Made by a program: the position numbers and the translations under genes
Notes under the pieces: model-generated
What the model was told of the DNA's origin: nothing
Database searches by the model: none
What the model saw: only the letters and a program-made list of their open reading frames with translations
Origin: Vibrio tasmaniensis 1F-187
GTDB lineage: Bacteria > Pseudomonadota > Gammaproteobacteria > Enterobacterales > Vibrionaceae
Assembly (NCBI RefSeq): GCF_000272405.2
Contig: NZ_AJZM02000005.1
Span: 1 to 25,117, forward strand
Reading direction: 5' to 3'
DNA length: 25,117 bases
Part shown: positions 1,768 through 16,383 of the stretch, piece after piece
How the letters are laid out: each line of letters starts with the position of its first letter
How positions within the stretch are numbered: the first letter of the stretch is position 1

Positions 1768-1796
1768 ATAAATGGAGCGATATACGCTCCATTTAT
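1768..1796. terminator. Stem-loop between convergent genes
   Basis: A perfect 12-bp stem (ATAAATGGAGCG / CGCTCCATTTAT) with a five-base loop lies between trmY and the convergent operon ending at 1816. The T-rich tail is short on both strands, so it may be a modest bidirectional terminator. Confidence 0.6.
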
Positions 1797-1815: not shown

Positions 1816-2853
1816 TTAAAAACGCACTTCGACGGTCATCCCTTCAATCCAATATTCTCTAGGCAAATCAGCCGTAAAGTTCAATGCTACTTTGAGATAT
1901 GCTGGCTGCCCTTCAAAAGGGCTTGCTAATTGAGTCGGCAACTTACTGACGATTTCTACCGAATCTGCAATCTCAGCCTCAAAAGTACTACCATTTGGAA
2001 ACCTTACCTTGGTATGAGCTCCTATTATCGCATTCTCTAAATATTTAGGGTCTAAATACGCGACCACTTGCGGGATGGTATTCTTCGCTATCGTTACAAG
2101 CTCGTCACCTTCGAACACTCTCTGCCCTTCAACGACATGGATATCGACAACGCGACCTGCATAGGGAGACTTAATCGCCAACCCTTGCTCAACAACACGT
2201 TTAAGTGCTAGATCTTTCATTAAAGCACGTCGAGCCTGACTAACCGGACCCGCTAATTCTCTTTCTTGTTCAGCTAATTTCGCATTTTGATAATCAAGTT
2301 TTTGTCCATTAAGCTGATTGTTAAGTGAGTTACTCATTCCCACTATACTTGCGTAGTCCACATCGGATACCTGACCTTTCTTCCTGTATTCTTCATAGCG
2401 CGTTTGAATTTGCTGTACCGTGTTTAAATTACTGCGCGTTTCTTCAATACCTTTCAAGTGCAGTAAGCCAATATCATCAGGAAACCTGATTTCTAAATCT
2501 AATAACTCAGCATGAAGAAATTCGATTTGCGCTTCCACTTCCATATTAGTCAACTGAATCGCTGTCTCTGATTTTAGGATTTGACTTCCATCGTCTACTG
2601 GAATTGGGCCGACTACTCCTGCAACTTTAGAGGTTAAGGTTACAGGATGCGAGGTAATGATTGCCGGAGCAATAACCAGAAAATTTGTCTTTAAGAAAAA
2701 ATACGCTACGAATAATAGAGGGCTAACCACTAAGCTTAAGATTAAATACCAACGAAAGCGGTAGCCTCCTCTTTTCGCTTGTCCGTAAGCAACTTTGACA
2801 CCATCATCCGATTGAGGGTTATTCTTTTTATCAAGATGAAATTTCACTTTCAT
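1816..2853 (-). CDS. HlyD/Alg44-like membrane fusion protein of polysaccharide operon
   Basis: A 345-residue periplasmic adaptor anchored in the inner membrane. About 34 cytoplasmic residues precede a single membrane segment (about 35-54). Then come a first lipoyl-like half (about 62-104), a long helical hairpin (about 105-222), the second lipoyl half with SPYAGRVVDIHVVEGQRVFE (about 229-248) and a beta-barrel (about 259-345). In HlyD and Alg44 relatives such proteins link an inner-membrane machine to the outer envelope. I chose the ATG at 2853 because AAAAGG lies 8 nt upstream and it follows the glycosyltransferase stop by two bases; a TTG at 2889 would extend it into that gene without a clear ribosome site. 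Unlike Alg44 it has no N-terminal PilZ domain. It is the last gene of the operon. Confidence 0.85.
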   Translation of the reverse strand: MKVKFHLDKKNNPQSDDGVKVAYGQAKRGGYRFRWYLILSLVVSPLLFVAYFFLKTNFLVIAPAIITSHPVTLTSKVAGVVGPIPVDDGSQILKSETAIQLTNMEVEAQIEFLHAELLDLEIRFPDDIGLLHLKGIEETRSNLNTVQQIQTRYEEYRKKGQVSDVDYASIVGMSNSLNNQLNGQKLDYQNAKLAEQERELAGPVSQARRALMKDLALKRVVEQGLAIKSPYAGRVVDIHVVEGQRVFEGDELVTIAKNTIPQVVAYLDPKYLENAIIGAHTKVRFPNGSTFEAEIADSVEIVSKLPTQLASPFEGQPAYLKVALNFTADLPREYWIEGMTVEVRF

Positions 2854-2855
2854 TG

Positions 2856-4172
2856 TTAAAACCTTTTGCCTTTTTTCAATACCCACCAAGGAGCCATACT
2901 GGATTCTTCATGACTTCTTCTAAATAACTCATTCACCATAGAGAACGCCGTAATCAACCGCATAAAGAACTGATAAAACGGATACAAGATTAGCCATTTT
3001 GCCATCTTAAGATCTTCTTTCGCTCTTTCGGAAACCAACCCAATATAGACAGTAAAAAACAACAACACTGTCGACAAATAGACGCAATAGATAAGGATCA
3101 GAAGTGCAGCAACAAAATCGAAGGGGTAAGCCCAAAATATGTAAAACATGAATAGCGAAACTAGAATGGGCAGCAATACGTTTTGTAGAACGCCATAAAC
3201 TAAAGTAAATATAAAGTTTCCCCAACCGAGTAATCTAGGGGTTAGACCTTCATTGTGTTTCCTTAAAAACAGAAATAATAAGTCTCCATCCCATCTTAGC
3301 CTTTGTTGTACCAACCCTTTCAGTGTATCGGGTACATCAGTATGGCCCACAGCTTTAGGTGTAAAAGCGAGTTTATTGTTTGGATGTCTTTTCTTGTACT
3401 GTTTGAGCCTCATCGTTAAGTCGAGATCTTCAGCAGTATGGGTATCCCACCCTCCAACTTGCTTCAGAGTGTTCTTTCGAAAGGCACCAAATGCTCCTGA
3501 TATATTATTGAGAACACCCCAGTTGGATAGCCCCGTCTTACCAGCTTGCATTGATAACATATATTCAAGAGACTGCATTCGCGTAAGCAAATTTTCTTGC
3601 CAGTTTCTAACGCGTAAAGCACCTCCAGAAGCAATCACATTCTTATCAGTAAATTGCTTCATCATTTGTAACGCCATGTCGTTATCAAAAGAAGTATCAC
3701 CATCAACATTAATAACAAAATCACCAGTAGCGTTATCTAAACCAGCATTCAACGTTGATACGCGACCTCCTCTTTGCCACTTAGGAATGACACGAACATC
3801 TCTGTTTCTTACCGTTTTATGTCTTTGCTCCCCTCGCATTGCAGCTAAGTAGGTATCTTCATTTTGAGTTGCTCCATCGACTACGGCTAAAATCTCAATC
3901 TTTCCGGGATAAAGCTGTTCAACAAGCGTGTCGATCGTTATCTCAATTGCATCTCCTTCTCCATAACAAGTAATTACAAACGAGATGCTTGGGTATTCTT
4001 TTATCTCTATGTCACTGGCCGAATAAGACCAGCGAAAGATTCCACTTAACACAAGCAGAAAGAGTGGGAGCTCCACCATAATCATCATGGGGAAAAGCAT
4101 TAGCCAAAGCTCAGAGTTCTCTAAAAGCATCCCCCAGAAGTACTGTTGGAGATCAAGGCTAACTGACAGCAT
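2856..4172 (-). CDS. Family 2 processive beta-glycosyltransferase (polysaccharide synthase)
   Basis: A 438-residue inner-membrane synthase of the PgaC/NodC/Alg8/cellulose-synthase type, which polymerises a nucleotide sugar in the cytoplasm and threads the chain through its own membrane part. A hydrophobic N-terminus (about 24-47) precedes the GT-A domain. All four catalytic signatures are present: VVDG (D99), DGD (157-159), TAED (246-249) and QRLRW (290-294, the QxxRW motif). Further membrane segments follow at about 317-345, 350-380 and 393-412. No PilZ domain is visible. The ATG at 4172 overlaps the upstream gene by 14 bases; a GTG at 4181 is the alternative, and neither has a strong ribosome site, which fits translational coupling. 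The sugar cannot be predicted from sequence alone. Confidence 0.88.
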   Translation of the reverse strand: MLSVSLDLQQYFWGMLLENSELWLMLFPMMIMVELPLFLLVLSGIFRWSYSASDIEIKEYPSISFVITCYGEGDAIEITIDTLVEQLYPGKIEILAVVDGATQNEDTYLAAMRGEQRHKTVRNRDVRVIPKWQRGGRVSTLNAGLDNATGDFVINVDGDTSFDNDMALQMMKQFTDKNVIASGGALRVRNWQENLLTRMQSLEYMLSMQAGKTGLSNWGVLNNISGAFGAFRKNTLKQVGGWDTHTAEDLDLTMRLKQYKKRHPNNKLAFTPKAVGHTDVPDTLKGLVQQRLRWDGDLLFLFLRKHNEGLTPRLLGWGNFIFTLVYGVLQNVLLPILVSLFMFYIFWAYPFDFVAALLILIYCVYLSTVLLFFTVYIGLVSERAKEDLKMAKWLILYPFYQFFMRLITAFSMVNELFRRSHEESSMAPWWVLKKGKRF

Positions 4173-5514
4173 AGATTTCACTGACTTTACTTTCTAACCA
4201 ATAACCAACATCTTCTTTCATTGTTGGATCGGGTATACCCCATGCAAAGACATTCAGCGTGAAATCGTCATCTTCGATTAGAGAACAAAGTGCTTCTATT
4301 TTCCCGCGTAATACTTCTATATGTTCCATCTTAGCTTTAGGCATAAACACAAGAAGAACATCGCTTTTAAACTGACAACAAATATCAGAATCTCTAAATA
4401 ATCCGTTTAAACGCTCTGTAATTTGCTCGATCAAAGCAAACATTTTTGCGTCTCCATTTTTAGACACATACTGCGCTAAATCAGGCAGGTGTAACCCCAA
4501 TAATAAGTGCTCTTCTTCGTGGCGAAGTGCAATCCTATTAACCCAGCTAAGAAGATTAGAAAAATACCCGCCGTCTACTTTCCCGCTTAAGGTCAGTTCA
4601 GGCGCCGATAGCTTCACTCCATGACGGAATATATACTCTCCCTGAACTCCAAGTTTCAGCGAATAAATCTTCCTAACAACCAACTTTGAAATATCGTTTT
4701 TTGTACCACACTCGAAACAAGAAGCTAATGTCTCCGCTTCAGAAAAAGAGTGAGAGCATGAGTTACATGTATGAGTTTCTAAAGGGCGATCATAATCCAC
4801 TCCAATATGTCGAAGCTGAGTCAAACATTTCGGGCATTCTAATTTTTGGTTGCGTTTGAACAGCCCTTGTTCAGCAACATGGCCACACGTGAAACAATGG
4901 AGAGAGGTACGCTCAGTAATATCAATGTCTTTGCAAGAAGGACACGCTTCGATGTAGTTTAAGTGGGCACTGGCACATTCATGACACACTCTGACTCGAT
5001 CGATTAAATCCTCAATTTCAAAAGTGTCTCGCTTAGTCTCTGATAATACAAAACGATAAGTTGAACTTAACTCCGGATAGTAAAGCTCCACTAACGGATA
5101 GGAATATATCGATTTATGAGACAAATATTTGTGAGGTGATAATCGACGTCTTTGATCCGAGCCTAACCACCCAACAAGAGGGTCTAATGTATCCGATGAG
5201 TCGATAATACTTTCTAACGTTCTGCGGTGTTGAATCACCTCTTCTTCAACACTTTCTGGATTTAAAGTGCCGTCTGATAAACACTCTGATAATGCACTAT
5301 CTTCTAAAATATAAATCTTCCAAGACCAAAATTTCCTGCTACGGTGGAGTTGGCTCATCAAGTCGTCTTGCGAACTAAGATCGCCATTTAGAACTATGAC
5401 GCCGCCCAATAAATCAGGGAGTTGATTAATGTCACTGACTGGCACGAGCTCAAATGATTCTCTGGTTTCAAGTGTAGGGGTTCCAAGGCAGTAAATTTTC
5501 AACTTATCTTTCAT
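4159..5514 (-). CDS. TackOD1 zinc-domain protein with degenerate GGDEF and intact I-site
   Basis: A 451-residue soluble protein, first in the operon. Residues 1-85 look like a small alpha/beta, receiver-like module without obvious phosphorylation residues. Six CxxC motifs follow (177-180, 191-194, 207-210, 227-230, 250-253, 266-269), enough for three zinc ribbons; the pattern matches the TackOD1 output domain. The C-terminal 150 residues resemble GGDEF, but the signature reads KSDVL (383-387), so diguanylate cyclase activity is very unlikely. The inhibitory-site motif RxxD is kept as RDSD (374-377), exactly five residues before the degenerate motif as in active enzymes. I infer a cyclic-di-GMP receptor, by analogy with PelD. 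The ATG at 5514 has GGAG eight bases upstream. Domain names are from recall and the receptor role is inference. Confidence 0.8.
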   Translation of the reverse strand: MKDKLKIYCLGTPTLETRESFELVPVSDINQLPDLLGGVIVLNGDLSSQDDLMSQLHRSRKFWSWKIYILEDSALSECLSDGTLNPESVEEEVIQHRRTLESIIDSSDTLDPLVGWLGSDQRRRLSPHKYLSHKSIYSYPLVELYYPELSSTYRFVLSETKRDTFEIEDLIDRVRVCHECASAHLNYIEACPSCKDIDITERTSLHCFTCGHVAEQGLFKRNQKLECPKCLTQLRHIGVDYDRPLETHTCNSCSHSFSEAETLASCFECGTKNDISKLVVRKIYSLKLGVQGEYIFRHGVKLSAPELTLSGKVDGGYFSNLLSWVNRIALRHEEEHLLLGLHLPDLAQYVSKNGDAKMFALIEQITERLNGLFRDSDICCQFKSDVLLVFMPKAKMEHIEVLRGKIEALCSLIEDDDFTLNVFAWGIPDPTMKEDVGYWLESKVSEIYAVS

Positions 5515-14846: not shown

Positions 14847-15233
14847 GACTAAGATCTTTTGGATAAAGTGGATGGATGCTAGCGCAGCTTAGCACTGCCA
14901 ATATCAATTTTATGTCAAAACGGTCATTAAGCCGTCATGGTCTAACAATGTTCGATTGATGAACCTCTTGAGTATTGATTCAGTGAACGGCCAGGCCAGC
15001 ACCAATAATGTTCGACATACACTGATGTTCATAGAGCAACAAAGACCACTCAAACCAGCTGAGACAAAGGCATTATCCCACTAAAGACTGCCGGACACGT
15101 TCTGCTGATAAAGTGAACACTTACCCGATTATAAGGCTGGAATCTGAAAAACTTTGCTGTCAGTCCTTTAAATCCACTATTGAAAGGATTACCATCTGGT
15201 CTGCTTTCAAAGCAAAACAGATTATTAATTTTT
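14847..15233. other. Intergenic region with the ribB and pgpB promoters
   Basis: No convincing gene. The promoters of pgpB (minus) and of the ribB leader (plus) must lie here, but I could not choose a clear -35/-10 pair. Just before the aptamer, 15194-15222 can fold as nested stems ATCTG/CAGAT and GCTTT/AAAGC. Confidence 0.35.
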
Positions 15234-15376
15234 ATTCTCAGGGCGGGGCGAAATTCCCCACCGGCGGTATGTTTTTAGCAAAATCTAAAGATAAGCCCGC
15301 GAGCGCTCGATCCGTCGAGGTCAGCAGATCTGGTGAGATGCCAGAGCCGACGGTCATAGTCCGGATGAGAGAGAAT
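15234..15376 (+). ncRNA. FMN riboswitch (RFN element) controlling ribB
   Basis: This is a textbook RFN aptamer. The closing stem P1 is ATTCTC (15234-15239) with GAGAAT (15371-15376). The conserved 5' part reads AGGGCGGGGCGAAATTCCCC followed by ACCGGCGGT, and the 3' part has GATCTGGTGAGATGCCAGAG followed by CCGACGGTCATAGTCCGGATG. FMN binding normally lowers expression of the downstream riboflavin gene. Here that gene is ribB, whose start codon is about 350 bases further on. How the aptamer is linked to ribB over that distance is not clear from the sequence. Confidence 0.97.
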
Positions 15377-15392
15377 GAAAACACACTCGTTT

Positions 15393-15726: not shown

Positions 15727-16383
15727 ATGAATCAGTCTTCACTACTTGCCGAATTTGGCGAACCAATCACTCGCGTTGAAAACGCACTGCAAGCTCTACG
15801 CGAAGGTCGTGGCGTACTTTTACTTGACGATGAAGATCGCGAGAACGAAGGCGACATCATCTACTCAGTAGAACACCTAACTAATGCGCAAATGGCGCTT
15901 ATGATCCGAGAATGCAGCGGTATTGTGTGCTTATGCTTAACAGACGAGCAAGCGAACCAACTTGAACTTCCACCTATGGTTGTTGATAACAACAGCGCAA
16001 ACCAAACTGCGTTTACCGTCACTATCGAAGCAAAAGTCGGCGTAACAACAGGTGTTTCTGCCGCTGACCGTGTAACAACGATCAAGACAGCAGCAAACCC
16101 AACGGCTAAGCCTAGTGACCTAGCTCGCCCTGGCCACGTATTCCCACTGCGTGCGCGTAAAGGTGGTGTACTAGCTCGCCGCGGTCACACAGAAGGTACT
16201 GTGGATCTAATGCAAATGGCAGGTCTTCAATCGGCAGGTGTACTGTGTGAAGTTACCAACCCAGACGGCACGATGGCAAAAGCGCCAGAGATCGTTGCTT
16301 TCGGTAAAATGCACAACATGCCTGTACTGACCATTGAAGATATGGTGATGTACCGCACTGAGTTCGACCTAAAACTGGCTTAA
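15727..16383 (+). CDS. ribB: 3,4-dihydroxy-2-butanone-4-phosphate synthase
   Basis: A 218-residue RibB. It converts ribulose 5-phosphate to 3,4-dihydroxy-2-butanone 4-phosphate and formate, the four-carbon precursor of riboflavin, using magnesium. The active-site signature [10 protein letters not shown] (34-43) is intact, as are the motif [14 protein letters not shown] and the closing segment [12 protein letters not shown]. The length matches stand-alone RibB proteins; there is no fused GTP cyclohydrolase II domain. The ATG has AGGAG seven bases upstream. It is monocistronic, under an FMN riboswitch with a 350-base leader carrying a palindromic repeat. A stand-alone riboswitch-controlled ribB apart from other rib genes is common in gammaproteobacteria and gives extra feedback-controlled supply of this precursor. 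Confidence 0.97.

What the first reader, a model, noticed from the sequence alone, without database searches (positions are those of the whole stretch)
1816..5514. Candidate undescribed polysaccharide synthase system: TackOD1/degenerate-GGDEF protein + GT2 + PilZ-less adaptor
Three overlapping or abutting genes encode a complete core: a signal-receiving cytoplasmic protein, a processive GT2 synthase with all catalytic motifs, and an Alg44-like periplasmic adaptor. Known cyclic-di-GMP-controlled synthases place the receptor in the synthase (BcsA PilZ), in the adaptor (Alg44 PilZ), or in a degenerate GGDEF protein (PelD). Here neither synthase nor adaptor has PilZ, and the only receptor candidate is fused to a zinc-ribbon domain. 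I do not know of a characterised system with this composition.
Basis: partly seen in the sequence, partly recalled or inferred. Interest (0 to 1): 0.85.

Follow-up and report, generated by a model that had tools for sequence, protein, structure and literature searches.

The report
Vibrio copy of mxdABC biofilm operon
These three neighbouring Vibrio genes are a relative of the already described Shewanella mxdABC operon, which is thought to build an uncharacterised biofilm polysaccharide under control of the bacterial signal molecule cyclic-di-GMP, so the system is real but not new.

Summary
Three co-directional genes on the minus strand (1816-5514) encode a TackOD1 zinc-ribbon protein ending in a degenerate GGDEF domain, a processive-type GT2 synthase, and a HlyD-type adaptor. 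None has a PilZ match.

The claim of an undescribed system does not hold. I located the Shewanella oneidensis MR-1 mxd locus through published promoter primers. Gene order is the same and all three proteins are homologous: MxdA 32%, MxdB 57%, MxdC 32% identity. MR-1 MxdA itself is TackOD1 plus degenerate GGDEF. Papers report that MxdA binds c-di-GMP and that deleting mxdA or mxdB impairs aggregation and biofilm. mxdD is absent here.

Additions: in 139 aligned MxdA-like proteins the c-di-GMP I-site RxxD is intact in 134 and the GG(D/E)EF motif in none. In 227 Vibrio genomes TackOD1 and this GT2 co-occur 31 times; GT2 alone 0, truncated TackOD1 alone 1. Some distant versions carry a predicted channel gene with an unknown C-terminal part.

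Most likely mechanism: c-di-GMP binds MxdA's dead GGDEF domain, MxdA switches on MxdB, MxdC passes the polymer outward. The sugar and the MxdA-MxdB contact are unknown. New member of a known kind.

The parts
4159..5514 (-). mxdA-like gene, 451 aa: N-terminal alpha/beta domain (about 1-105), TackOD1 zinc-ribbon domain (106-287), degenerate GGDEF domain (about 306-451) with I-site RDSD (374-377) and KSDVL in place of GGDEF (383-387)
2856..4181 (-). mxdB-like gene, 441 aa membrane GT2 synthase with DxD, TAED and QxxRW motifs and conserved C-terminal tail HEESSMAPWWVLKKG
   Evidence: (57% identity to S. oneidensis MxdB)
1816..2889 (-). mxdC-like gene, HlyD-family membrane-fusion/adaptor protein; longest frame starts at TTG 2889, more likely start ATG at 2853
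   Evidence: (32% identity to MxdC)
1768..1796 (-). terminator-like hairpin just after mxdC (12-pair stem, imperfect T-rich tail); consensus match only, little above chance

Best explanation
The three genes are an mxdABC operon. The MxdA-like protein is a cytoplasmic c-di-GMP receptor: its GGDEF domain has lost the catalytic motif but keeps the RxxD I-site. Bound c-di-GMP is relayed, perhaps through the zinc-ribbon TackOD1 domain, to the MxdB-like GT2 synthase, switching it on. MxdB polymerises an unidentified sugar across the inner membrane, and MxdC, a HlyD-type adaptor, leads the polymer through the periplasm to an outer-membrane channel encoded elsewhere. The product is a biofilm matrix polysaccharide. 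Shown here: homology, gene order, I-site conservation, loss of the catalytic motif, the GGDEF fold and co-occurrence. Shown by others in Shewanella, as read in papers: c-di-GMP binding by MxdA, its interaction with CheY3, and the deletion phenotypes. Inferred: that MxdA acts directly on MxdB, the role of TackOD1, the export route, and that the Vibrio copy behaves like the Shewanella one.
For: Identity to MR-1 MxdA 32% over 409 columns, MxdB 57% over 430, MxdC 32% over 365, in the same gene order. MR-1 MxdA: TackOD1 238.7 bits, GGDEF 22.5 bits, just below the 23.8 cut-off. I-site R in 134 of 139 and D in 138 of 139 aligned proteins, both in 134, and an intact GG(D/E)EF in 0 of 139; 11 of 12 TackOD1 Cys columns invariant and the twelfth 132 of 139. 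GGDEF fold over 306-451. In Vibrio, 31 of 227 genomes have both TackOD1 and the GT2, 1 has only a truncated TackOD1, 0 have only the GT2; in 30 of the 31 the two matches lie 472-527 bp apart. Beyond Vibrio, GT2 sits next to TackOD1 in 24 of 25 non-own over-cut-off loci of the order sample, which itself includes Vibrio genomes (23 large regions; 2 short ones), and in 15 of 17 fetched class loci, one of these a broken partial match (L092). Papers.
Against: MxdA and MxdC identity is only 32%, so function could have shifted. mxdD has no match in the first 12 kb of the window or in the other loci scanned. One report, known only by citation, says MxdA alters c-di-GMP levels indirectly (cited in PMC3691769, and PMC3409153), which would suit an upstream role. 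A review passage instead says c-di-GMP acts by interacting with the MxdB glycosyltransferase, citing the same Gambari paper (PMC8683041). No direct MxdA-MxdB contact was found in the passages read. No outer-membrane channel was recognised next to the operon. TackOD1 function is described as obscure (PMC5847659). The I-site is not intact in 5 of 139.
Confidence: 0.85

Rival explanations
1. The operon is mxdABC, but MxdA is not the synthase switch. It works upstream, as a scaffold that gathers CheY and diguanylate cyclases and changes c-di-GMP levels indirectly, while MxdB is controlled by c-di-GMP directly, by transcription or otherwise.
For: Papers say MxdA indirectly modulates c-di-GMP levels (Rakshe et al. 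2011, seen only as cited) and interacts with CheY3 and with PdgA. A review says c-di-GMP acts through MxdB. [quoted passage not shown]
Against: The mxdB-like GT2 never occurs without TackOD1 in 227 Vibrio genomes and the two genes are adjacent, which suggests a dedicated direct partner. MxdA is reported to bind c-di-GMP. MxdB has no PilZ match.
Confidence: 0.2
2. A distinct, undescribed synthase system that merely resembles Mxd.
For: Moderate identity (32%) for the receptor and adaptor; mxdD missing.
Against: Same three families in the same order, 57% identity in the synthase, TackOD1 in MR-1 MxdA, and a graded series of intermediates. mxdD also has no match in the three other loci assigned to the same genus as MR-1 (L032, L033, L037), so it is not core.
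Confidence: 0.04
3. The GT2 is not a polymer synthase but makes a short glycan or glycolipid, and the HlyD-like protein exports or modifies that.
For: No NCBIfam GT2 model reaches its cut-off, e.g. PgaC/IcaA 161.4 of 422.3 bits, NodC 75 of 550, CelA 25.7 of 699.1. The sugar product of Mxd was not identified in the passages seen.
Against: QxxRW and TAED motifs and best similarity to PgaC-type polymer synthases; mxdA and mxdB mutants are aggregation-deficient and mxd mutants form flat biofilms.
Confidence: 0.08

Closest known systems
mxdABCD operon of Shewanella oneidensis MR-1
   Same: Gene order A-B-C, TackOD1 plus degenerate GGDEF in A, GT2 in B, HlyD-type C; homologous proteins
   Different: mxdD (a 122-aa frame in MR-1, assigned by position) is absent here; A and C only 32% identical; regulation in Vibrio untested
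BgsBA mixed-linkage beta-glucan synthase of Sinorhizobium meliloti
   Same: c-di-GMP-activated GT2 without PilZ (PMC5567048, abstract); a HlyD-type partner BgsB is recalled, not checked
   Different: c-di-GMP binds the C-terminal domain of the synthase itself; the abstract names no TackOD1-type receptor; BgsA sequence was not compared
Pel system, PelD receptor (recalled)
   Same: Works alike: degenerate GGDEF domain with I-site as c-di-GMP receptor for a synthase
   Different: Membrane PelD with GAF domain and a seven-gene operon, as recalled; no PelD comparison was run
PNAG synthase PgaC/IcaA
   Same: Best-scoring NCBIfam GT2 model for the synthase (161.4 bits)
   Different: Far below the family cut-off of 422.3; no PgaD- or PgaB-like gene among the immediate neighbours scanned
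Alginate Alg8/Alg44 (recalled)
   Same: GT2 plus HlyD-like adaptor layout
   Different: Alg44 carries PilZ (recalled); no PilZ match here

Membership tests
MxdABC synthase system | mxdA homologue with TackOD1 and degenerate GGDEF | tested here: met
   32% identity over 409 columns to MR-1 MxdA; TackOD1 in both
MxdABC synthase system | mxdB homologue (membrane GT2) directly downstream | tested here: met
   57% identity over 430 columns, 23 bp overlap
MxdABC synthase system | mxdC homologue (HlyD type) directly downstream | tested here: met
   32% identity over 365 columns
MxdABC synthase system (mxdABCD as named; fourth gene not treated as defining, since no other locus scanned has it) | mxdD as fourth gene | tested here: not met
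   No tblastn match (E up to 1e-3) in the first 12 kb of the window nor in any of the other 43 loci scanned except MR-1 itself
MxdABC synthase system | c-di-GMP binding by MxdA | not testable with these tools
   I-site RxxD present here and in 134 of 139; binding itself needs the bench
MxdABC synthase system | biofilm/aggregation role | not testable with these tools
   Reported for Shewanella only in the papers seen
PNAG synthase PgaC/IcaA | Reaches NCBIfam TIGR03937 cut-off | tested here: not met
   161.4 against 422.3 bits
Bacterial cellulose synthase BcsA | CelA model and PilZ domain | tested here: not met
   CelA 25.7 of 699.1 bits; no PilZ
Active diguanylate cyclase | GG(D/E)EF catalytic motif | tested here: not met
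   KSDVL in the window protein; intact motif in 0 of 139 aligned proteins
Response-regulator receiver domain at the N-terminus | REC fold with phosphorylatable Asp | tested here: inconclusive
   No Response_reg in the window protein's table nor among the 25 most-matched families of 99 members; alignments to REC-GGDEF chains PleD, DgcR, WspR span residues 1-5 to 451 at rmsd above 12; the presumed Asp position is N in the window protein, D in 25 of 139; isolated-domain model weak, pLDDT 63.9, and its fold search did not run

The most novel reading that the evidence does not exclude
MxdA-type proteins are a separate, widespread class of c-di-GMP receptor for polysaccharide synthases. A dead GGDEF domain senses the signal and the TackOD1 zinc module, so far without a known role, docks onto and gates the GT2 enzyme. 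In distant relatives the system carries its own outer-membrane channel fused to a possible glycan-hydrolase domain, making a self-contained secretion machine.
Probability: 0.4. Interest if true: 0.55.

Novelty: new member of a known kind. Interest (0 to 1): 0.33.

Why it matters
It joins three loose ends: a domain of unknown role (TackOD1), a poorly understood Shewanella biofilm operon whose sugar product was not identified in the passages seen, and many Vibrio genes labelled simply as diguanylate cyclase. The conserved I-site and lost active-site motif say those labels are probably wrong: these proteins likely read c-di-GMP and do not make it. The channel-bearing variants point to how the polymer may leave the cell.

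Tried and rejected
An undescribed system: rejected, see the homology to mxdABC. Active diguanylate cyclase: rejected on the degenerate motif. Pga, Bcs or Nod synthase: NCBIfam cut-offs not reached. A c-di-GMP riboswitch upstream: the only Rfam match over gathering score in the window is an FMN riboswitch at 15230-15380. Phage origin: none of six peptide patterns from the GT2 matched viral contigs. Solved structures by sequence for the TackOD1 protein: three matches between E 0.48 and 0.87, taken as chance. Solved structures for the GT2: 14 weak matches, best E 5.9e-8, including hyaluronan synthases, none decisive for the sugar. A promoter for the operon: 9 promoter-like sites against 9.6 in shuffles, no signal. 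A homologue of the L058 channel in the window's own genome: none found, and the tool warns that an empty answer shows nothing. Receiver fold of the N-terminal domain: left open; only two-domain rows with high rmsd were listed, and the isolated-domain model was weak.

Papers: PMC3691769, PMC7666153, PMC11395469, PMC3409153, PMC8683041 and PMC5847659 were read as passages (plus the Discussion section of PMC7666153); PMC5567048 as outline and abstract. Gambari et al. 2019 and Rakshe et al. 2011 are not held and are known only by citation. That I saw no study of a Vibrio mxd operon rests on searches of this open-licence library only; the other listed papers were judged by title and start of abstract.
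Full report
What is there. The window lies in a Vibrio genome: the closest TackOD1 protein is 93% identical and labelled Vibrio syngnathi, and a named Vibrio splendidus contig carries an 81% copy. The genome has one TackOD1 match. On the minus strand three genes follow each other: 4159-5514 (451 aa), 2856-4181 (441 aa) and 1816-2889 (357 aa at most). Pfam gives TackOD1 (195.1 bits) with a sub-threshold GGDEF match, GT2 families, and HlyD_3. No PilZ match appeared. The third gene probably starts at ATG 2853, two bases after the GT2 stop codon. A terminator-like hairpin lies just beyond it, little above chance. Neighbours look unrelated: trmY and a DUF3087 gene on one side, an ArsP-type permease on the other.

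Identification. Recall of the Shewanella mxd operon led to a direct test. Published primers for the S. oneidensis mxd promoter (PMC3691769) were used as patterns. One of 129 genomes in the genus sample matched one primer, exactly; two more primers matched the fetched region exactly. Directly downstream lie genes of 462, 442 and 362 aa and a 122-aa frame in the mxdD position. Comparison with the window: A 131 of 409 identical (32%), B 246 of 430 (57%), C 118 of 365 (32%). MR-1 MxdA has TackOD1 at 238.7 bits and a sub-threshold GGDEF match. The window operon is therefore mxdABC without mxdD. Other GT2 matches in the window's own genome are only 27% and 32% identical.

What is known of Mxd, from passages read. 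Deletion of mxdA or mxdB impairs aggregation and strongly reduces biofilm; MxdB is GT2-like and MxdC efflux-like (PMC3691769). MxdA has a degenerate GGDEF domain (PMC3409153). MxdA binds c-di-GMP and interacts with CheY3 and PdgA (PMC11395469). CheY proteins of E. coli and V. cholerae, but not P. aeruginosa, interact with S. oneidensis MxdA in two-hybrid tests (PMC7666153). A review puts the c-di-GMP contact at MxdB instead (PMC8683041). The sugar product was not given in the passages read.

Receptor anatomy. Two protein searches listed their best 120 of 327 and best 120 of 210 hits, together 144 proteins. Of these, 137 of 400-520 aa plus the window and MR-1 proteins were aligned (7 dropped for length; 139 rows). 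The I-site Arg is kept in 134 of 139 (K in 3, N 1, Q 1) and the I-site Asp in 138 of 139; 134 have both. An intact GG(D/E)EF is present in 0 of 139; only the central Asp is common (114 of 139). Eleven TackOD1 Cys columns and two His (206, 236) are invariant in all 139, and the twelfth Cys is kept in 132. A 99-row AlphaFold2 model has mean pLDDT 91.4. Foldseek and VIA-align match residues 306-451 to GGDEF domains. The N-terminal 105 residues form an alpha/beta unit. Two-domain alignments to receiver-GGDEF proteins hint at a receiver-like fold, but rmsd is above 12 and Pfam lists no receiver domain, and the stand-alone model is weak. This stays open.

Synthase. In 44 aligned GT2 proteins from the loci (one, L092, broken and one, L098, interrupted), D102, D160 and D162 are invariant, QxxRW is kept in 43 and the TAED acidic pair varies (E251 in 36, D252 in 43). 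The C-terminal tail HEESSMAPWWVLK(R/K)G is shared by the Vibrio and MR-1 copies; the distant clade has NPWKVS instead.

Conservation. TackOD1 over its cut-off: 25 of 394 genomes in the order sample, 19 of 369 in the class sample, 32 of 227 Vibrio, 16 of 129 in the genus of MR-1. So it is an accessory system. In Vibrio the GT2 (E up to 1e-60) is in 31 of 227. All 31 are TackOD1 carriers, the one remaining carrier (G866) has a truncated TackOD1, and no genome has the GT2 alone. In 30 of 31 the two matches lie 472-527 bp apart, in G876 2896 bp. The order sample has 25 non-own over-cut-off loci; 23 were fetched as large regions and all 23 have the GT2 adjacent, with HlyD downstream in 21. Of the other two, seen only as short loci, one shows the GT2 and one (a broken gene near a contig end) does not. 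Of 17 class loci fetched (2 further fragment matches were not fetched), 15 have the GT2 adjacent, one of them only as a broken partial match (L092). A HlyD-like gene is downstream in 9 (in 3 of these with a channel gene between) and upstream in 3 by BLAST, plus L089 by Pfam. Several of the HlyD hits are weak.

Variants. Four loci (L058, an Aeromonas caviae plasmid; L079; L082; L086) match a TolC-type gene between B and C, L086 only over its C-terminal part; Pfam finds OEP in L058. Seven others (L038, L051, L085, L087, L089, L090, L094) have a gene of 670-699 aa upstream of A; in the four whose frames were listed (L038, L051, L085, L089) one gene lies between, HlyD-like by Pfam in L089 and, below cut-off, L051, and by weak BLAST in L038 and L085. 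L051 and L089 versions of the upstream gene are 36% identical; neither has a Pfam match, and relation to the Aeromonas channel is marginal (21% identity, E 0.021 in one pairwise test). An HLD(I/V/L)E motif is found in 10 of these 11 loci (nine, L082), not in L086 (three forward frames searched); the search used a slightly looser form of the motif. For the C-terminal part, L089 and L051 gave no Pfam match and L058 only matches below cut-off, and L089 no PDB match. A channel role for the seven and a glycan-hydrolase role for the C-terminal part are guesses.

Mechanism. Best reading: c-di-GMP binds the I-site of MxdA, MxdA activates MxdB, MxdB makes and moves the polymer, MxdC passes it outward. 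The direct A-B step, the sugar and the outer-membrane exit are inferred. The main rival is an upstream scaffold role for MxdA.

Verdict. A good observation, a wrong novelty claim. It is a new member, in Vibrio, of the Mxd kind. The family-wide receptor signature, the strict co-occurrence and the channel-bearing variants are useful additions.

Noticed in passing
L051:2609-4624, L089:2565-4658, L058:7260-9344 (and L038, L079, L082, L085, L087, L090, L094): Some Mxd-like operons carry a further large protein (670-704 aa; 836 aa in L082), in the Aeromonas copy an outer-membrane efflux protein by Pfam, whose C-terminal part has no Pfam match over cut-off where tested and an HLDxE motif in 10 of 11 loci looked at.
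   Followed up: partly
L057:4695-6004: An alphaproteobacterial plasmid (Alisedimentitalea scapharcae) has the TackOD1 part and a 116-aa GGDEF-like tail (likeness judged by eye) as two overlapping frames, followed by GT2, HlyD and galE; split gene or frameshift is unresolved.
   Followed up: partly
Vibrio genomes G900, G334, G876, G866: Interrupted or truncated copies: GT2 in two pieces (G900), interrupted GT2 (G334), one stop and a 2.9 kb gap (G876), truncated TackOD1 without GT2 (G866); the operon seems to be decaying in places.
   Followed up: no
window 15230-15380: FMN riboswitch (119 bits) some 350 bases upstream of a ribB-like gene at 15727-16383 (gene name from recall of the sequence).
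   Followed up: no
window 1816-2889: The shared MVG(I/F)E...KVL beginning of this frame and MR-1 MxdC mirrors the conserved GT2 tail in the overlapping frame, so it should not be taken as protein conservation.
   Followed up: yes
public records, e.g. P0001, P0021, P0035: Many MxdA homologues are named diguanylate cyclase although the GG(D/E)EF motif is intact in none of 139 aligned; probably misannotation.
   Followed up: yes
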